From positions 124,001 to 188,000 of the forward strand of contig JAHJLB010000051.1 in NCBI GenBank assembly GCA_018822105.1: a stretch of 64,000 nucleotides of DNA, read 5' to 3'. Both the position numbers and the translations under genes were made by a program. Shown piece after piece: positions 45,034 through 53,064 of this stretch. Within the stretch, counting starts at the first letter, position 1; every line of letters starts with the position of its first letter. The notes under the pieces were generated by a model, which was not told where the DNA came from, ran no database searches, and saw only the letters and a program-made list of their open reading frames with translations. This DNA is from Pseudomonadota bacterium (GTDB lineage Bacteria > Desulfobacterota > Desulfovibrionia > Desulfovibrionales > Desulfovibrionaceae).

Positions 45034-45663
45034 TCAGCTCAGCGCTTTGGCGGGCACGCCGCCCACGGTTGCGCGCTGGGCCACATCCCGGGTCACCGCG
45101 GACCCGGCGCCGACCACGCTCCACGCGCCGATCTTGACCCCGGGCACGGCGCAGGCCCCGATGCCCACCAGGGCGCCCTCGCCCACGCAGACGTTCCCGG
45201 CCAGGTGCGCGCCGGGCCCCACATGGCAGTGCCGTTCCAGCACGCTGTGGTGGTCCAGGCTGGCGCAGGTGTTCAGGATGGCGTTTTCCAGGATGCGGCC
45301 GCCGGTGTTGACCACCGTGCCCGCGCACAGCACCGCCCCGGGGCTGACCACCACATCCGGGGCCAGAATGGCCGTGGGGTGTATGCCCGTGGCGAAGCGC
45401 TTGCCGGCCTGCGTGAGCTCCGCAAACAGCCGGGCGCGGCTGGCGTTGTCGCCGATGCCCAGGATGACGCAGTCGTGCGGCTGGGCGGGCAGATCCGCCA
45501 GCCTGCCCAGCACGGGCAGGCCCAGGACCCTTGTCCCCTGGAGCGCCTCGTCGTCGTCAAGAAAGCCCACCAGCTCCATTTCCCGGCCCTTGGCCCACAT
45601 CTGGAAGATCACGTCGGCCACGACCTGGCCGTGTCCGCTCGCACCCATGACGACTATCTTCAT
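45034..45663 (-). CDS. pglD: Sugar O/N-acetyltransferase, PglD/NeuD family
   Basis: A 209-residue protein. The N-terminal Rossmann-like part (MKIVVMGASGHGQVVADVI, LVGFLDDDE) is typical of PglD/NeuD. From about residue 90 there are left-handed beta-helix hexapeptides (AVLCAGTVVNTGGRILENAILNTCASLDHHSVLERHCHVGPGAHLAGN), and H137/H138 in the LDHH motif match the catalytic His of PglD. It would N-acetylate the 4-amino sugar, completing UDP-diNAc-bacillosamine. Confidence 0.9.
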   Translation of the reverse strand: MKIVVMGASGHGQVVADVIFQMWAKGREMELVGFLDDDEALQGTRVLGLPVLGRLADLPAQPHDCVILGIGDNASRARLFAELTQAGKRFATGIHPTAILAPDVVVSPGAVLCAGTVVNTGGRILENAILNTCASLDHHSVLERHCHVGPGAHLAGNVCVGEGALVGIGACAVPGVKIGAWSVVGAGSAVTRDVAQRATVGGVPAKALS

Positions 45664-45817
45664 CGCAGCCTCCGGCAGGTGTTTGCCGTCTGTCTTTTCT
45701 GCTCTCTACCGCCCAGTTGGCGCCTGCGTCAACGAAACCGGCGCGGAGCCGCCGCCCCAATCCGCCCGGGCAATGAACCGCTCCAAAACAGGGGCCTGCG
45801 CGCAGCCCCCCTTGCCT

Positions 45818-47014
45818 TCACTCCGCGCCCAGCACGCGCCGAACGGCGGTGATAACGTCATTCACGTCGGCATCGGTGAGCCGGGCCGAGATGGGCAGGC
45901 TCACGGTCTGGCGCCCCAGGCGCATGGCCTGGGGAAAGTCTTCGGGCCGCCAGCCCAGGCGCTCCTGGTAGTAGGGATGCTCCGGCAGGCTCATGTAGTG
46001 CACGCCCACGCCGATGCCCTGCCTGGTCATGGCCGTGAGGAAGGCGTCGCGGCCGATGCCGCTTGCGGCCTCGTCCACCAGCACGGAATAGAGGTGCCGG
46101 GCGTGCAGGGTGTCCGGGTCCAGCTCCGGGGGCGCGGGCAGGCCCAGGCGCCTGCCCTCCGGCAGACCGGCGAAGGCCTTGTCGTAGGCTGCCCAGACCT
46201 GCACGCGGCGGGCGTGGTAGGCGTCCACGCGCGGCAACTGGTGGATGCCCAGGGCCGCCTGCAGGTCCATCATGTTGTACTTGAACCCGGCCTCGACCAC
46301 CAGATAGTGCTTGTAGCCCTCGTCGCCGAAGCGCTTCCAGGCGTCGGCGCTCATGCCGTGCAGGCCCAGCACCTTGATGCGCGCCAGGTCCTCGGGACGC
46401 CTGGCGATGACCATGCCGCCCTCGCCGGTGATGATGTTCTTGGTGACGTAGAAGCTGAAGCAGCCGAAATCCCCGAGGGTGCCGGCCTTTTTGCCGTGGT
46501 AGGTGGTCTCGATGGCGTGGGCGCAGTCCTCGATGACGGCCAGGCCATGCTCGGCGGCCATGGCCAGGAGGGCGTCCATGTCGCAGGGCCGCCCGGCGAA
46601 GTGCACGGGCAGAAGGGCGCGGGTGCGCGGCGTGATCTTCTCGCGCACCAGGGCCGGGTCGATGTTCATGGTCAGGGGGTCAACGTCGGCCAGCACCGGG
46701 GTGCCTCCGGCGTGCAGGATGGCGTTCACCGTGGCGCAGAAGGTCAGCGGCGTGGTGATGACCTCGTCGCCGGGCTGCAGGTTCAGGGCCACCAGGGCCA
46801 AGTGCAGGGCCGCCGTGCAGGAGTGCAGCGCCACGGCGGACTCCACGCCCTTGTAGGCCGCGAAGTCGCGTTCGAAGCGGGCCGTGCGCGGGCCGGTGCC
46901 GATCCAGCGGCTGGTGAGGCAGGCCACCACCTCATCGATCTCGGCCTGCTCCAGCGCGGGCGAGCCGAAGACGAGGAAATTTTCCTTGCTGCGGACAGGA
47001 GGCGTGTCAGACAT
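45818..47014 (-). CDS. DegT/DnrJ/EryC1-family aminotransferase (second)
   Basis: A 398-residue PLP enzyme with ALHSCTAALHLALVAL, PLTFCATVNAILHAGGTPVLADVD, IEDCAHAIETTYHGKKAG and FSFYVTKNIITGEGGMV (Lys in VTKN binds PLP). It differs clearly from the PglE-like enzyme and belongs to another branch of the family (SpsC/ArnB-like core). It may make a second amino sugar used by the same pathway. A gap of 154 bases separates it from the acetyltransferase gene. Confidence 0.88.
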   Translation of the reverse strand: MSDTPPVRSKENFLVFGSPALEQAEIDEVVACLTSRWIGTGPRTARFERDFAAYKGVESAVALHSCTAALHLALVALNLQPGDEVITTPLTFCATVNAILHAGGTPVLADVDPLTMNIDPALVREKITPRTRALLPVHFAGRPCDMDALLAMAAEHGLAVIEDCAHAIETTYHGKKAGTLGDFGCFSFYVTKNIITGEGGMVIARRPEDLARIKVLGLHGMSADAWKRFGDEGYKHYLVVEAGFKYNMMDLQAALGIHQLPRVDAYHARRVQVWAAYDKAFAGLPEGRRLGLPAPPELDPDTLHARHLYSVLVDEAASGIGRDAFLTAMTRQGIGVGVHYMSLPEHPYYQERLGWRPEDFPQAMRLGRQTVSLPISARLTDADVNDVITAVRRVLGAE

Positions 47015-47074
47015 CAGATGTTCCTTGCTCCAGCGTTCAGGTTGCCGCTGGGGTACCAGATGACGCCCGGATGT

Positions 47075-47680
47075 TCAATGCGGGGTTTCGCCCCGGTCCT
47101 GGGCGGGCGTGCCCAGGAATTCCGGCATGGTCGCCTCGCCAGCGGCGCTGATGCCCTCGCGCCGCAGCACCGCCCGCACCGTACGCCACAGGATGACGAG
47201 GTCAAGCCAAAGCGAGCGGTTGTCCACGTACCAGACGTCCAGGACGAACTTCTCCTCCCAGGTGAGGGCGTTGCGGCCATTGATCTGCGCCCAGCCGGTG
47301 ATGCCCGGCGGCACCTCGTGGCGCCGGGCCTGCTCCGGCGTATAGCGCGGCAGGTAGCGCATCAGAAGCGGCCTGGGCCCGACCAGGCTCATGTCCCCGG
47401 CAAGCACGTTGAACAGCTCCGGCAGCTCGTCCAGGGAGGTGCTGCGCAGCCAGCGGCCAAAGGGCGTCAGGCGCTCCGCGTCGGGGCCGTCCCCTTCCAG
47501 CATGGTCCGGAACTTCAGGATAAAGAACGCCCTGCCCTGCAGGCCGGGGCGCTGTTGGCGGAAAAACACGCCGGGGCCGAGCCTGACCCGCACGGCCAGG
47601 GCCACGGCCAGCAGCACCGGGGCCAGCAGCGCCAGCCCCGGCAGCACCAGGGCCAGGTCCAGCAGGCGCTTTGCCCTCAC
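47075..47680 (-). CDS. pglC: Undecaprenyl-phosphate sugar-phosphate transferase (PglC-like)
   Basis: A 201-residue monotopic phosphoglycosyltransferase, minimal PglC size: one membrane segment (LDLALVLPGLALLAPVLLAVALAVRV), FFRQQRPGLQGRAFFILKFRTM, STSLDELPELFNVLAGDMSLVGPRPLL and GITGWAQINGRN. It loads the first sugar phosphate on undecaprenyl phosphate. GTG start overlaps the end of the GT4 gene. Confidence 0.92.
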   Translation of the reverse strand: MRAKRLLDLALVLPGLALLAPVLLAVALAVRVRLGPGVFFRQQRPGLQGRAFFILKFRTMLEGDGPDAERLTPFGRWLRSTSLDELPELFNVLAGDMSLVGPRPLLMRYLPRYTPEQARRHEVPPGITGWAQINGRNALTWEEKFVLDVWYVDNRSLWLDLVILWRTVRAVLRREGISAAGEATMPEFLGTPAQDRGETPH

Positions 47681-48882
47681 CGCCCTGCTCCGTCATTTGC
47701 GTCGGCGGTGTCGCCCCCGTCCAGGCCCAGGACCGCGAGCATGTCCCGCACCACCAGCCGGGCGTCAAAGGTCTCCTCGGCCAGGCGGCGGCCGGCAGCC
47801 CCCATGTGCGCGATGAGCTCCGGCTCCTCCACGAAGCGCGCCATGGCCCGCATCAGCGCCCCGGGCTCGCAGGGCGGCACCAGGAAGCCGGTGACGCCCT
47901 CCTCCACGGTCTGGCGGCAGCCGGGCATGTCCGTGGTGATGACGGGCCGGGCCATGCTCATGGCCTCCAGGATGGAGCGCGGCGTGCCCTCCCGGTAGTA
48001 GGTGGGCAGCACGAACACGCTGGCCGCGGCCAGGTGGGGCCGGACGTCCTCGACGGGATCCAGCACCTCGACCACGCGCTCCTCGCGCCAGCGGCGCAGC
48101 ATCTCCTGCGAAACGCCGTCCGGACCATGGTCCAGCGGCCCCAGCAGGCGGCACACCACCTGGGGATGGCGCTTCTTCAGCATCTGGCAGGCCTCGACAA
48201 ACACGCCCACGCCCTTGGCCCACAGCAGCCGGGCCATGCACAGGAAAACGGGGGCTCCGGTCTGCGGATGCGCCAGGACCGGCGGGGCCGGGGCGAAATG
48301 CCCCAGATCCACGCCGGACCCGGCCAGCACGGCCTCGCGCTGGCCTTGGCCCCGGCCGGTGATGCCCAACTGGTCGAACAGGGCGCGGTCGTCCGGGTTC
48401 TGGAAAAACACCGCGCAATTCCGCTCCAGGGCCTTGCGGTACAGCCGCACCACCACCTCGGAAAGCAGGCGCCGCCCCGGGCTCAGCCGCGCCTCGGCCT
48501 CCAGGCCCCCGAAGGCGTAGCCCAGGCCCGTGATCAGGGAGGCCGCCCTGGGCGCCTTGGCCCACCGCGCGGCAAGGGAGCCGTAGATCACGGGCTTGAT
48601 GGTGTAGGACAAGACCAGGTCGGGGCGGAGCTCCAGGAAGGCCCGGCGCAGGGCCAGCAGGGTGCGCGCGTCCCGGAGGGGGTCCACCCCGCCGCGCCGC
48701 ATGGGGAAGCGCAGCAGCTCGACGCCCAGGGCGCGCAGGGCCTCCTGGACGTCTGGCGCGCCGGGCTCGTCCGGCGGGGCCAGGGCAGTGACCCTGTGCC
48801 CGCGCTGCACCAGGGCGGCAAGCAGGGGCCCGCGAAAGTTCACCAGGGACGGGGCGAATCCGGCGACGACGACGATGTGCAT
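47677..48882 (-). CDS. Family 4 glycosyltransferase (PglA-like)
   Basis: A 401-residue GT-B protein. HIVVVAGFAPSLVNFRGPLLAALVQRGHRVTALAPP at the start and SYTIKPVIYGSLAARWA, FLCMARLLWAKGVGVFVEAC, VFVLPTYYREGTPRSILEAMSMARPVITTDMPGCRQTVEEGVTGFLVPP in the C-terminal half are PglA/WbpY-like motifs (donor-binding E in REGTPRSILEA). Likely adds the second sugar to the undecaprenyl-linked primer. Confidence 0.92.
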   Translation of the reverse strand: MHIVVVAGFAPSLVNFRGPLLAALVQRGHRVTALAPPDEPGAPDVQEALRALGVELLRFPMRRGGVDPLRDARTLLALRRAFLELRPDLVLSYTIKPVIYGSLAARWAKAPRAASLITGLGYAFGGLEAEARLSPGRRLLSEVVVRLYRKALERNCAVFFQNPDDRALFDQLGITGRGQGQREAVLAGSGVDLGHFAPAPPVLAHPQTGAPVFLCMARLLWAKGVGVFVEACQMLKKRHPQVVCRLLGPLDHGPDGVSQEMLRRWREERVVEVLDPVEDVRPHLAAASVFVLPTYYREGTPRSILEAMSMARPVITTDMPGCRQTVEEGVTGFLVPPCEPGALMRAMARFVEEPELIAHMGAAGRRLAEETFDARLVVRDMLAVLGLDGGDTADANDGAGR

Positions 48883-48891
48883 GGCGCCCTT

Positions 48892-50907
48892 CTACTCCGA
48901 AATCCCGGCGCTTTCCAGCCAGGATTGGAACATGAGCAGGGGCCAGAGCCGGTACTGGCGGTTGAAGCGGCCGGACTGGTGCTCGGCCCAGGCGCCGGCC
49001 ACGGGCTCGGGCTGGAAATAGCCCTCGCGCCTTAGTCGCACGGGGTCCAGCAGCCCCACCGCCCAGTCCTTGAGCTCCCCGCGCAGCCAGGCGTCCAGCG
49101 GCACGCCGAAGCCCATCTTGGGCCGCTCCCACAGCTCCGGGGGCAGGTAGCGCCCCAGCAGCCCGCGCAGGGCCAGCTTGCCCTGCCCCGCGCGCACGCG
49201 CATGCCCACGGGCAGGCTCCAGGCGAACTCGGCCACGCGGTGGTCCAGATAGGGGGCGCGCGCCTCCAGGCCCACGCTCATGGCGGCGCGGTCCACCTTG
49301 GTCAGGATGTCCTCGGGCAGGTACCAGGCCGCGTCCAGGTATTGCAGCCAGGACAGGCCGCCCTGGGGGCAGAGGTGCGCCGCCGGCCAGGAGCCGGGCT
49401 GGCGCAAGGCCCAGGAGGCCTCGCTCGCGCCAGGCACCAGCAGCCCCGGATCAGGCCAGGCCGAGACCAGGGCCGCGTAAAAGGCCGTGGGCACCCGCGC
49501 CGGCAGGGCCATGGCCAGCTTGTGCAGTTTCTCGCCCGGCAGCCTCTGCCTGGCCCTGGCCGGCAGGACGCGCCCCGCAGCCCGGAAGGCCCTGTCCCAG
49601 GCCCTGGGCGCAAGGGACTGCAGCAGACCCGCCGCCACGCTGCGCAGCCCCACGGACAGGCCGGACAGCCTCTCCCAGAGCCGCGGGGCGTGGACATGGC
49701 GGTTGTACCCGGCGAAAAGCTCGTCCCCGCCGTCGCCGGACAGGCACACCGTGACGTGCCCGCGCGTCAGCTCGGCCACCAGGCGCGTGGGCAATAGCGA
49801 GGCGTCGGCAAAGGGCTCGCCGGAAATCTGCGCCAGCCTCGGCACCAACTCCAGGGCGTCCCTGGGCCCGGCCACCAGGGTGGTGTGCTCGCAGCCCAGG
49901 TGCCGGGCCACGGCCTCGGCCTGGGCCGACTCGTCGTAGGCCGCGTCGCTGTAGCCGATGGTGAAGGTGCGCACCCTGCCCGCCGGACCGCTGGAGGCCT
50001 GCTCGGCCATGAGCGCGGCGATGAGCGAGGAGTCGATGCCGCCGGACAGGAGCGCGCCCAGGGGCACGTCGGCCACCATCTGCCCGCGCACGCTCTGGCG
50101 CAGGAGGCCCAGCAGGGCGTCCTGGGCCTCGGCTTCGGTCCCGCCAAAGGGCCGGGCCAGCCCGGCCTCCACCGCGCCGGAGAGCGACCACCAGGGCCGC
50201 GGCGCGGGCAGATCGCCCCTCGCGGCGTCCGCCAGGCGCACGCTGAGCAGGTGCGCGGCCGGGAGCTTGCGCACGCCCTCCAGAATGCTGTGCGGGGCGG
50301 GCACGCAGGACAGCCGCAGAAACAGGGCCAGGGCCGCGCGGTCCACTCGTGCGCCGAATCCCGGCGCAGCGGTGAGCCCCGGCAGTTCCGAGGCGAAGAA
50401 GAGCCGGCCCTGGCGCAGGGCGTAGTACAGGGGCTTCTCGCCCAGGCGGTCGCGGGCCAGGGTCAGGGTGCGCTCGCGCACGTCCCACAAGGCCAGGGCG
50501 AACATGCCCGCCGCGCGGGCCAAGGCCTCCTCCGGGCCCCACAGGGCCAAGGCCTCCAGCAGGATCTCCGAGTCTGAATGCCCGCGCCAGGAAATGGCGC
50601 TGCGCCCGGAATAGGCCCGCGCAGCCTCGATCTGGGACCGCAGCTCGGCGTGGTTGTATATCTCGCCGTTGTAGCAGAGCACGAAACGGCCGCAGTGGCT
50701 GCGCATGGGCTGGCCGCCCTGGGGCGATAGGTCGAGGATGGCCAGGCGGCGGTGGCCCAGGGCCAGATGCCCGGCGGGGTCGGCATAGGCGCCGTGGCCA
50801 TCCGGCCCACGGTGGGCCAGGGCATTGGCCATGCGCGCGGCGGCCTCGGCCAGTTCAGCCGGGGTGGAGGCGCCTGTGGCGTCGAGGATGCCCGAAATGC
50901 CGCACAT
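48892..50907 (-). CDS. asnB: Glutamine-hydrolysing asparagine synthase-type amidotransferase
   Basis: A 671-residue protein starting MCGISGILD; Cys2 is the class II glutaminase nucleophile. ALAHRGPDGHGAY, GHRRLAILDLS and YNGEIYNHAELR follow. The synthetase domain has GALLSGGIDSSLIAALMAEQA (PP-loop), GDGGDELFAGYNRHV and DILTKVDRAAMSVGLEARAPYLD. In polysaccharide clusters such enzymes often amidate uronic acids (WbpS-like) rather than make asparagine. Operon context with the Pgl set favours that; true AsnB cannot be excluded. Confidence 0.92.
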   Translation of the reverse strand: MCGISGILDATGASTPAELAEAAARMANALAHRGPDGHGAYADPAGHLALGHRRLAILDLSPQGGQPMRSHCGRFVLCYNGEIYNHAELRSQIEAARAYSGRSAISWRGHSDSEILLEALALWGPEEALARAAGMFALALWDVRERTLTLARDRLGEKPLYYALRQGRLFFASELPGLTAAPGFGARVDRAALALFLRLSCVPAPHSILEGVRKLPAAHLLSVRLADAARGDLPAPRPWWSLSGAVEAGLARPFGGTEAEAQDALLGLLRQSVRGQMVADVPLGALLSGGIDSSLIAALMAEQASSGPAGRVRTFTIGYSDAAYDESAQAEAVARHLGCEHTTLVAGPRDALELVPRLAQISGEPFADASLLPTRLVAELTRGHVTVCLSGDGGDELFAGYNRHVHAPRLWERLSGLSVGLRSVAAGLLQSLAPRAWDRAFRAAGRVLPARARQRLPGEKLHKLAMALPARVPTAFYAALVSAWPDPGLLVPGASEASWALRQPGSWPAAHLCPQGGLSWLQYLDAAWYLPEDILTKVDRAAMSVGLEARAPYLDHRVAEFAWSLPVGMRVRAGQGKLALRGLLGRYLPPELWERPKMGFGVPLDAWLRGELKDWAVGLLDPVRLRREGYFQPEPVAGAWAEHQSGRFNRQYRLWPLLMFQSWLESAGISE

Positions 50908-51079: not shown

Positions 51080-51883
51080 ATGGTCGCAGCCTGGCTTTTC
51101 TACATCGGCACCGGCGCCTTCGCCGGAGTCCTGGCCGGACTCCTCGGCGTGGGCGGCGGGCTGGTCATCGTGCCCATGCTCAATTTCGTCTTCACCATCC
51201 AGGGACTGCCAGCGGCCTATATCCAGCACCTGGCCCTGGGCACATCCCTGGCCAGCATCATGTTCACCTCCGTGTCTTCCCTGCGCGCGCACCACCAGCA
51301 CGGCGCCGTGGTCTGGGCCATCGTCCGCGCCATCACGCCGGGCATCCTCCTCGGCACCTTCCTGGGCTCCAAGGTCGCTGCCCTGCTCTCCACGCGCTTT
51401 CTCACCGGATTCTTCGTGGTCTTCCTGTTCTACGTGGCCGCGCAGATGCTGCTGAACATCAAGCCCAAGGCCTCGCGCCAGACGCCGGGCGGCCTGGGCA
51501 TGTTCGGGGCGGGCAGCGTCATCGGCGGGGTGTCCAGTCTCGTGGGCATCGGCGGCGGCACGCTCTCCGTGCCCTTCATGACCTGGTGCAACGTGCCCCT
51601 GCACACCAGCATCGGCACCTCGGCGGCCATTGGCTTCCCCATCGCCGTGGCCGGGGCCGCGGGCTATTGCCTCAACGGCCTGGGGGCCGCCCTGCCCGGC
51701 CTTTCCGAGGGCTATGCCGGGTTCATCTACCTCCCGGCGCTGCTCGGCGTGGCCGCCACCAGCATCCTCACCGCGCCCCTGGGCGCGCGGCTGGCCCACA
51801 GCCTGCCCGTGGGCAGGCTCAAGAAGATCTTCGCCTGCCTGCTCGTCATCATGGGCAGCAAGATGCTCTACGGGATGCTCTAG
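51080..51883 (+). CDS. TauE/SafE-family sulfite/organosulfonate-type permease
   Basis: A 267-residue protein with about eight membrane helices. FAGVLAGLLGVGGGLVIVPML and the repeat GVSSLVGIGGGTLSVPFMTWCNVPLHTSIGTSAAIGFPIAVAG are the two GxGGG repeats of the family. Start after CCGGAGG. Members export or import sulfur-containing anions such as sulfite, taurine or sulfoacetate; the substrate here is unknown. It stands alone and is divergent from asnB. Confidence 0.9.
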   Translation: MVAAWLFYIGTGAFAGVLAGLLGVGGGLVIVPMLNFVFTIQGLPAAYIQHLALGTSLASIMFTSVSSLRAHHQHGAVVWAIVRAITPGILLGTFLGSKVAALLSTRFLTGFFVVFLFYVAAQMLLNIKPKASRQTPGGLGMFGAGSVIGGVSSLVGIGGGTLSVPFMTWCNVPLHTSIGTSAAIGFPIAVAGAAGYCLNGLGAALPGLSEGYAGFIYLPALLGVAATSILTAPLGARLAHSLPVGRLKKIFACLLVIMGSKMLYGML

Positions 51884-51901: not shown

Positions 51902-52852
51902 TCAGACCGTACAGCCCATCTTGCCGAAGGGATTGGCAAACTGCTCCAGGTGCGGGGTGGTGCGGAAGGCCTGCCCGGCTGTGGACAGGCGCACCGGCTT
52001 GGCGTCCGGCGCGGCCCTGACCAGCACCATCTCCGGCGAGAATTCCAGCCACATGGGCACGGGCTCGCGCTCGGCGTCGCCGCAGAGGCTCTCCCGGCTG
52101 GCGGGCCTGAACCGGCGCTCGCTTTTGTCCGGTCCAACGGCCACGATCTGCGTCAGGCTCGTGGCCACGCGGCGGACCGACCCGTCCGGCGTAAAGGCCA
52201 GGGAGTTGCTGTCGCCGTGGATGCCGCAGGCGTCCAGGTCAAAGGCCTGCACCACGCCCACGGGCGTGGTGACGGGCACTGGCCGGGCCGGCTCCACGCT
52301 GCGCAGCGAGCCGTCGGGCCGAAAGCTGATCCCGGTGCGCGTGGAAATCACCCCCGCCGGGGTGAGCACATCCAGAACCTCGCCCGGCCACAGGGTCAGG
52401 CTGCGCAGGGTGCCCTCCGGGCAGAAGCTTACGCCGATGACCCGCGCGGTGACGCTGCCAAGAGGCGTTGCAAGGGTTACCGGACCGGCCAGGCGGCCCT
52501 CGTCCTCCTGGGTCCAGTACCCCGAGAGCTTGCCGTTGAGCGGGAAGGCGCGGGCCAGCGCCCCGTTGGCGTGGAAGGTCACCAGCTCCGCCCGCATGCG
52601 CCCGGCCGGGGTCTGGATCTCGGTGGGGGCTTCGAGCGGCAGGTGCTTGAGCAGGCCGTTCCTGTGGAAATGCAGGGCCTGCACGGTGCGCCGGCGCAGG
52701 TCGTCTGTGCTGTGCTGGACCGGCAGCACGCCGTGCGGGGTCTCAAGCAGCATCGGCCCAGCCGGAGCGCAGGACATGAGCGCCCCGTTGTCGTGCCACT
52801 CCAGGCAGCCGGCCACAGGAATCTCGCCATAACGCGTATGCACCGTGTCCAT
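51902..52852 (-). CDS. Beta-repeat protein of unknown function (MORN_2/YwqK-like repeats)
   Basis: A 316-residue protein with ATG after AGAGGGGAGG. It has at least six copies of a 35-45-residue unit: an F/WxxxGxL turn (WHDNGAL 19, FHRNGLL 62, FHANGAL 93, FCPEGTL 143, FRPDGSL 177, FTPDGSV 220) alternating with TPxG (TPHG 39, TPAG 81, TPLG 129, TPAG 164, TPVG 196). This resembles the strand-turn-strand units of MORN_2/YwqK-type antitoxin repeats but is not a clear member. No signal peptide or membrane helix, so probably cytoplasmic. Cys209-Gly-Ile-His and the C-terminal CTV are noticeable. Function unknown. Confidence 0.75.
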   Translation of the reverse strand: MDTVHTRYGEIPVAGCLEWHDNGALMSCAPAGPMLLETPHGVLPVQHSTDDLRRRTVQALHFHRNGLLKHLPLEAPTEIQTPAGRMRAELVTFHANGALARAFPLNGKLSGYWTQEDEGRLAGPVTLATPLGSVTARVIGVSFCPEGTLRSLTLWPGEVLDVLTPAGVISTRTGISFRPDGSLRSVEPARPVPVTTPVGVVQAFDLDACGIHGDSNSLAFTPDGSVRRVATSLTQIVAVGPDKSERRFRPASRESLCGDAEREPVPMWLEFSPEMVLVRAAPDAKPVRLSTAGQAFRTTPHLEQFANPFGKMGCTV

Positions 52853-52954
52853 TGCGCCTCCCCTCTTTTGCCAGGGGTAGGCAAGAACCGCGCCAATATT
52901 TTCCCCTGTCATAGCGAGGTGTTTGCAGACCGTCGACAAAGACAATCCACATAT

Positions 52955-52972
52955 TTGTCGTTCTGACGACAA
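52955..52972. promoter_or_regulatory. Palindrome TTGTCGT-TCTG-ACGACAA (CRP/FNR-type operator candidate)
   Basis: A perfect 7-4-7 inverted repeat about 100 bases upstream of the repeat-protein start. TGTCG-N6-CGACA fits the layout of CRP/FNR-superfamily sites, and the half-site resembles that reported for CooA. A third half-site CGACAA lies at 52934-52939, and GACAAT...TTTGTC between them recalls the bfr operator. Confidence 0.5.
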
Positions 52973-53064
52973 GAGTGTAGCCGTCCGCCCCCTTTGCACC
53001 GTCCAGGCCATCTGGCGCCTTTGGCCAACGGGATGCCCTCGGCCATCTGCACCGTCCTGACGGC

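What the first reader, a model, noticed from the sequence alone, without database searches (positions are those of the whole stretch)
51902..52852. Uncharacterised protein built from alternating FxxxGxL and TPxG beta-units
Six FxxxGxL turns alternate with five TPxG turns along 316 residues with no other recognised domain. The pattern recalls MORN_2/YwqK antitoxin repeats, suggesting a repetitive beta-sheet scaffold, possibly an immunity or ligand-binding protein. Its isolation and special upstream palindrome add interest.
Basis: partly seen in the sequence, partly recalled or inferred. Interest (0 to 1): 0.55.

Follow-up and report, generated by a model that had tools for sequence, protein, structure and literature searches.

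The report
Unnamed MORN-like nitrogen-fixation accessory protein
The gene encodes a repetitive beta-sheet protein of no named family that turns up with nitrogen-fixation genes in oxygen-shunning bacteria, so it is probably an unrecognised helper of the nitrogen-fixing enzyme rather than part of a toxin system.

Summary
In detail: a real 316-residue gene (minus strand, 51902-52852) with alternating F/WxxxGxL/V and TPxG turns. The guess about function is not. In 199 genomes of the order, 91 of 91 with a strong hit carry nifH, against 19 of 108 others; in Clostridiaceae 39 of 39 against 17 of 127; of 48 genomes reached through loci of several phyla, 47 carry nifH over its cut-off. Relatives often lie beside nifH, nifV, modABC or anfO. 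The window gene stands alone, but has a sigma-54 promoter, and the 'special palindrome' overlaps upstream sites of a type also found before nifH. Most relatives end in one cysteine or a CxxCxxC tail. Best reading: a NifA/sigma-54-controlled nitrogenase accessory protein of anaerobes, plausibly handling molybdenum or cofactor precursors where NifQ is missing. The nif linkage is strong; the exact step is inferred. No NCBIfam model matches any of 66 members, and my ten paper searches found no description.

The parts
51902..52852 (-). CDS, 316 aa, MORN-like all-beta protein; highly conserved FPLNGKLSGYW....E centre (residues 103-118), EP (187-188), D205, NSL (216-218) and a Cys near the C-terminus (C314)
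52880..52896 (-). sigma-54 type -24/-12 promoter TTGGCGCGGTTCTTGCC, 7 of 9 scored positions plus GG-N10-GC
   Evidence: a site of this type at -28 to -55 from the ATG in 20 of 21 stand-alone genes, window included
52955..52972 (.). perfect 7-bp inverted repeat TTGTCGT-CAGA-ACGACAA; contains TGT-N10-ACA (NifA consensus, recalled)
   Evidence: the TGT-N10-ACA form was not found upstream of the 31 relatives scanned
52967..52980 (-). conserved upstream site 1, CTACACTCTTGTCG (8/8 of C[GT]AC-N6-GT[AC]G)
   Evidence: the five nearest relatives have a site at the same distance, four at 8/8 and one at 7/8
52947..52960 (-). upstream site 2, CGACAAATATGTGG (7/8)

Best explanation
The gene encodes a cytoplasmic nitrogenase accessory protein of anaerobic diazotrophs. 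Shown: it is an all-beta MORN-like protein by model, it occurs together with nifH across several phyla, many relatives sit in nif/nifV/mod/anfO gene blocks, and the window copy has its own sigma-54-type promoter with upstream sites like those before nifH. Inferred: it is made under NifA when nitrogen is scarce; its sheet docks on a nitrogenase component or assembly protein (NifEN, NifDK or NifH); and its mobile C-terminal cysteine (or CxxCxxC tail in many Firmicutes) binds and hands over molybdenum, an Fe-S unit or a cofactor precursor, a job done by NifQ elsewhere. My split: linked to nitrogen fixation 0.95; acts in maturation rather than regulation or protection 0.6; specifically a molybdenum/cofactor carrier about 0.22-0.25.
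For: Co-occurrence: 91/91 strong carriers have nifH over cut-off, 19/108 others; Clostridiaceae 39/39 and 17/127; 47/48 genomes behind mostly non-Desulfovibrio loci. Position: 33 of 91 lie 1.4-3.2 kb from nifH on the opposite strand, 12 lie about 11 kb from it on the same strand; inspected loci show nifH<|>nifV-modA-modB-gene, modABC-gene, and anfO-gene-nifH-nifI-nifDK. In the window's genome NifA, modC, modA, modB, nifV and the nifH cluster lie together on another contig, in the layout that this gene closes in L046. Promoter: sigma-54 score >=5 in 20/21, upstream site >=7/8 in 21/21 and 8/8 in 13/21 (background 3%, 16%, 1%), sites >=7/8 before nifH in 6/6 regions. Tail: Cys near the C-terminus in 54 of 66. 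NifQ above cut-off in 0/199. Models of two distant members give the same arrangement with a disordered tail.
Against: 19 nif genomes of the order and 17 of Clostridiaceae lack the gene and presumably fix nitrogen without it. 10 of 66 members have no Cys in the last 30 residues, among them the C. beijerinckii group, where the gene precedes nifH, so the tail is not universal. 36 of 73 scored loci show no nif/mod/anfO neighbour in the stretch held. NifQ is also absent from nif genomes of the order without this gene, so there is no replacement pattern. The Fisher tests are not corrected for kinship. The upstream motif was defined on the same sequences in which it was counted. No binding, expression or mutant data exist here.
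Confidence: 0.6

Rival explanations
1. A post-translational regulator or protective partner of nitrogenase: the sheet binds the enzyme to shield it or switch it off (as NifI, DraT or Shethna-type proteins do by other means; recalled), and the tail cysteine senses redox state or forms a disulphide.
For: Same co-occurrence and promoter data; the gene lies directly beside nifH-nifI in the C. beijerinckii group; the G-box of CPAP, a peptide-binding sheet, is the top structural neighbour (Z 6.7, under the noise level of 8).
Against: Operons with homocitrate synthase and molybdate transporter genes point to cofactor supply; the named hosts are anaerobes, so oxygen shielding is less needed.
Confidence: 0.22
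2. A molybdate- or homocitrate-handling factor not confined to nitrogenase.
For: nifV directly upstream at 3 loci, modB at 2 and modA at 1, a ModC-like ATPase upstream at 2 by inspection; modA present in 12 and modB in 7 of 73 stretches.
Against: Strictly tied to nifH: every strong carrier tested has it, one as a truncated hit, whereas molybdate use is far wider.
Confidence: 0.1
3. An immunity or antitoxin protein of the MORN_2/YwqK kind, as first proposed.
For: Fold and sequence resemblance to MORN_2/YwqK.
Against: No recurring toxin neighbour; single copy per genome in nearly all cases, none in the phage or plasmid collections; nif linkage.
Confidence: 0.03
4. A nitrogen-starvation protein co-regulated with nif but acting elsewhere (ammonium or amino-acid metabolism).
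For: Stand-alone position in the window and in 36 of 73 loci.
Against: Absent from nearly all genomes tested without nifH, which also face nitrogen starvation.
Confidence: 0.05

Closest known systems
MORN_2 repeat proteins (Pfam PF07661), incl. YwqK-family 'antitoxin'
   Same: Repeated aromatic-xx-N/D-G-x-L turns; all-beta model; 28 of 66 members hit the model at E<=1, best 1.2e-12; five of nine best viral fold matches named MORN/YwqK
   Different: The window protein does not hit it; additional TPxG turns; conserved FPLNGKLSGYW....E centre; Cys tail; nif linkage
CPAP/TCP10 G-box and OspA sheets
   Same: Top VIA-align matches, Z 6.7 and 6.5; Tcp10_C hit weakly by 3 of 66
   Different: Z below the noise level of 8 given by the tool, high rmsd; no functional link
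NifQ (Pfam PF04891), molybdenum donor for FeMo-co
   Same: Possible analogy only: nif-linked, C-terminal cysteines (the NifQ motif is recalled)
   Different: No sequence match; NifQ not above cut-off in any of 199 genomes of the order
AnfO (Pfam PF09582)
   Same: Frequent immediate neighbour (directly upstream at 21 loci) and nif-linked
   Different: Unrelated sequence; in only 15 of 199 genomes of the order and not in the window's genome
Paenibacillus Orf1 / DUF269
   Same: Accessory ORF in nif clusters whose loss lowers nitrogenase activity (PMC6429469, passages read)
   Different: A smaller DUF269 protein (567-bp gene), another family

Membership tests
MORN_2 / YwqK | Match to Pfam PF07661 over its cut-off | tested here: inconclusive
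   Window protein: none. 28 of 66 members at E<=1, best 1.2e-12; how many pass the curated cut-off is not shown by the tool
MORN_2 / YwqK | MORN-like beta-sheet fold | tested here: inconclusive
   Foldseek viral library E 4e-5 to 1e-3 but TM-scores 0.18-0.29; SET7/9 structure Z 4.4
MORN_2 / YwqK | Paired toxin gene (for an antitoxin role) | tested here: not met
   No recurring toxin among conserved neighbours
nif regulon (NifA/sigma-54) | sigma-54 -24/-12 promoter | tested here: met
   52880-52896; 20 of 21 stand-alone genes, background 3%
nif regulon (NifA/sigma-54) | Upstream activator site shared with nifH | tested here: met
   >=7/8 in 21 of 21 and before nifH in 6 of 6; the motif was defined on the same data, and which protein binds it was not tested
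nif regulon (NifA/sigma-54) | NifA gene in the genome | tested here: met
   L115:4507-6096, TIGR01817 535.5 bits, cut-off 528.85
nif regulon (NifA/sigma-54) | Induced under N2 by NifA | not testable with these tools
   no expression data
Nitrogenase accessory proteins | Occurs with nifH and not without it | tested here: met
   91/91, 39/39, 47/48; not the reverse: 36 nif genomes lack it
Nitrogenase accessory proteins | Needed for full nitrogenase activity or assembly | not testable with these tools
   needs a mutant
NifQ | Match to PF04891 | tested here: not met
   not among the Pfam hits of the protein or of 66 members
NifQ | Carries a Mo-Fe-S cluster and donates molybdenum | not testable with these tools
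   needs biochemistry

The most novel reading that the evidence does not exclude
A MORN-like sheet with a metal-binding C-terminal cysteine tail is the missing molybdenum (or cofactor-precursor) carrier for FeMo-cofactor synthesis in anaerobic diazotrophs that lack NifQ: a non-homologous counterpart of NifQ, kept together with nifV and modABC.
Probability: 0.22. Interest if true: 0.82.

Novelty: new variant of a known kind. Interest (0 to 1): 0.62.

Why it matters
How molybdenum reaches the cofactor in diazotrophs without NifQ is, to my knowledge, open: one paper states that Clostridium, Paenibacillus, cyanobacteria and Frankia have no nifQ (PMC4761190, passages read), and I found none above cut-off in 199 genomes of this order. 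An unnamed, widely conserved, nif-linked protein, in part of its range in operons with homocitrate synthase and molybdate transport, is a concrete candidate, and could be a missing part in efforts to move nitrogenase from anaerobes into other hosts.

Tried and rejected
Toxin/antitoxin or immunity: rejected for lack of toxin neighbours and for the nif link. Mobile element or phage origin: no match in the phage and plasmid collections, none in PHROGs for three members. CO-sensor (CooA) site: I recalled that the palindrome also fits a CooA-like pattern, but relatives conserve a different, nifH-like site pair, so I dropped it; not formally tested. Exact NifA site TGT-N10-ACA as the conserved element: not so, it was found only in the window among 32 upstream regions. 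AnfO as an obligate partner: rejected, in 15 of 199 genomes only. Paenibacillus orf1 as the same gene: rejected, it is DUF269. No fold in the PDB at Foldseek E<=0.001; this does not show that the fold is new.

Rows dropped. Co-occurrence in the order: two weak hits, G126 (81 residues) and G158 (two stops inside), neither with nifH over cut-off, were left out of 91/91; with them it is 91 of 93. Promoter counts: 33 upstream regions were looked at (window plus 31 loci; one search added L034); 21 went into the counts. Left out: L038, L043, L045, L046, L055, L093, L094 (behind nifV, mod or anfO genes) and L048, L049, L053, L057, L067 (no clear site near the ATG; L048 and L049 may lie behind a nifV that my gene caller missed; the rest count against a universal promoter). 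One search was given 48 of the 76 loci; the one below cut-off (L106's genome) has a truncated nifH hit. Neighbour counts use 73 of 76 loci (no intact target found in L034, L102, L106), with a simple gene caller of my own that can pick antisense ORFs in GC-rich DNA. Alignment A2 used 65 of 76 loci plus the window protein; A3 used 43 loci plus the window protein.

Papers: PMC4641369, PMC6429469, PMC4342158, PMC7341956, PMC3464626 and PMC4761190 were read as passages found by term only; all others as listings with the start of abstracts. PMC4641369 predicts an AnfA/VnfA-like regulator for the D. vulgaris nitrogenase operon; I saw no mention of this family in the passages. 'Not described' rests on ten searches of open-access papers only; one search returned no papers and one search matched mostly an animal gene.

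Full report
What was claimed and what is there. The finding is the minus-strand ORF 51902-52852, 316 residues. Its turns are real: FxxxGxL five times strictly, seven times if W and V are allowed; TPxG six times; none of 20,000 shuffles reached these counts. The window protein has no match over a cut-off in Pfam or NCBIfam, no phmmer match in the PDB, and none in PHROGs. It occurs once in its own genome.

Family and spread. Homologues were found in 93 of 199 genomes of the order, usually one per genome; none in the plasmid and phage collections. A profile search of genome contigs gave 76 loci in Desulfovibrionales, Clostridia, Spirochaetales, Lentisphaerae and binned Deltaproteobacteria. Over the wider phylum 10 of 297 genomes matched, eight of them from the same family. 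A tree of 66 members clusters by phylum far better than shuffled labels (7 changes, shuffled mean 27.5), so frequent transfer between phyla is not indicated, though bins and long branches limit this. No NCBIfam model matches any of the 66 at E<=0.01.

Fold. AlphaFold2 on the 66-row alignment gives mean pLDDT 92.4, pTM 0.87, nearly all beta, with residues 308-316 disordered. A second model, of the Petroclostridium member at 35% identity, gives the same arrangement (pLDDT 92.5) with its cysteine tail at low confidence. Foldseek finds nothing in the PDB at E<=0.001 but nine viral-library matches at that level, five named MORN or YwqK, all with low TM-scores. VIA-align's best rows are the CPAP G-box and OspA, both with single-layer sheets as recalled, Z 6.7 and 6.5, which the tool says may mean only a common arrangement. 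28 of 66 members hit Pfam MORN_2 at E<=1, best 1.2e-12.

Link to nitrogen fixation. Gene families recurring beside the relatives are NifH, NifD/K/E/N, NifI, AnfO, NifV, ModA and ModB (37 of 73 loci have at least one). Three layouts stand out: nifH<|>nifV-modA-modB-gene (L046; nifV-gene in L038 and L043); modABC-gene (L066, L080); and, in the C. beijerinckii group, a PBP/HTH regulator - anfO - gene - nifH-nifI1-nifI2-nifD-nifK. Tested genome by genome: in the order, 91 of 91 strong carriers have nifH over the curated cut-off against 19 of 108 others; two weak partial hits without nifH were dropped. In Clostridiaceae 39 of 39 against 17 of 127. Of 48 genomes behind loci mostly outside Desulfovibrionales, 47 have nifH over cut-off and one a truncated hit. 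The p-values (5e-38 and 7e-25) ignore kinship. As a partial control within one genus (g2), 12 strong carriers all have nifH, and the listed g2 genomes without nifH have no strong hit; one nif genome there (G140) lacks the gene.

The window's copy. In its genome NifA, modC, modA, modB and nifV lie next to nifH-nifI1-nifI2-nifD-nifK and further nif genes on another contig: the layout whose nifV-mod arm ends with this gene in L046. In 21 stand-alone genes the sigma-54 score is at least 5 in 20 (background 3%), the site C[GT]AC-N6-GT[AC]G is present at 8/8 in 13 (background 1%) and at least 7/8 in all 21 (background 16%); sites of at least 7/8 precede nifH in 6 of 6 regions examined, 8/8 in 3. The motif was read off the same sequences, so these rates flatter it; five of the twelve regions left out show no clear promoter without an obvious operon to explain it. 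The exact TGT-N10-ACA form is special to the window.

The tail. 54 of 66 members end with cysteine close to the C-terminus: 16, all Bacillota, with CxxCxxC in the last 30 residues, 38 with at least one Cys in the last 12; all 28 Desulfovibrionales-type members are among the 54. Ten have none in the last 30, including the C. beijerinckii group. CxxCxxC occurs nowhere else in these proteins.

Mechanism. Established here by sequence: conservation, nif co-occurrence, operon linkage, promoter type, predicted fold, terminal cysteines. Inferred: the protein is made with nitrogenase, stays in the cytoplasm (no N-terminal hydrophobic stretch is visible), and uses a rigid sheet with the conserved FPLNGKLSGYW....E centre to bind a nitrogenase or assembly protein while the mobile cysteine end carries metal or a cluster. 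Association with homocitrate and molybdate genes makes cofactor assembly the likeliest step; NifQ was not above cut-off in any of 199 genomes and is reported absent from Clostridium (PMC4761190, passages). Against the carrier idea: the tail is not universal, and other nif genomes of the order manage without both NifQ and this gene. A regulator or protective partner remains the main rival.

Novelty. I call it a new variant of a known kind: a nif accessory family, unnamed in the libraries searched, on a MORN-like scaffold not tied to nitrogenase in the papers I could search (ten searches, open-access only; two searches asked for MORN and YwqK with nitrogenase directly and gave three papers on other subjects, judged from the listings). 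Overall interest 0.62; the bold reading, a NifQ counterpart of anaerobes, is 0.22 likely and worth 0.82 if true.

Noticed in passing
L098:7992-8777 and L099:4956-5741: A short (262 aa), very divergent branch of the family; in L099 it follows two nitrogenase-component-like genes, a cysteine-synthase-like gene and an ABC ATPase (by eye). Possibly a paralogue serving a nitrogenase-like enzyme.
   Followed up: partly
L092:7358-7969 and similar (21 loci): AnfO, named as an Fe-only nitrogenase protein, lies directly upstream of this gene and near nifH in Clostridium nif clusters (Pfam PF09582, E 1e-51), so its name may be too narrow.
   Followed up: partly
L092:6269-7222, L060:8956-9936: A HTH_17 plus PBP_like regulator is a recurrent neighbour (9 loci); a possible molybdate sensor of these nif clusters.
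   Followed up: no
L063:11590-15816: The gene lies about 2.6 kb upstream of genes that look by eye like anfH, anfD, anfG and anfK, so a link to alternative nitrogenase is possible.
   Followed up: no
L115:14865-16037 (own genome, other contig): NifB-like ORF scores 166 bits, well under the TIGR01290 cut-off of 344, matching only the first part; a variant or a frameshifted assembly.
   Followed up: no
window 51081-51883: Permease gene that looks like the TSUP/TauE kind, convergent with the gene studied; identified by eye only.
   Followed up: no
window 45034-49000, minus strand: Exopolysaccharide-type cluster (acetyltransferase, aminotransferase, sugar transferase, glycosyltransferase, asparagine synthase-like), by eye only.
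   Followed up: no
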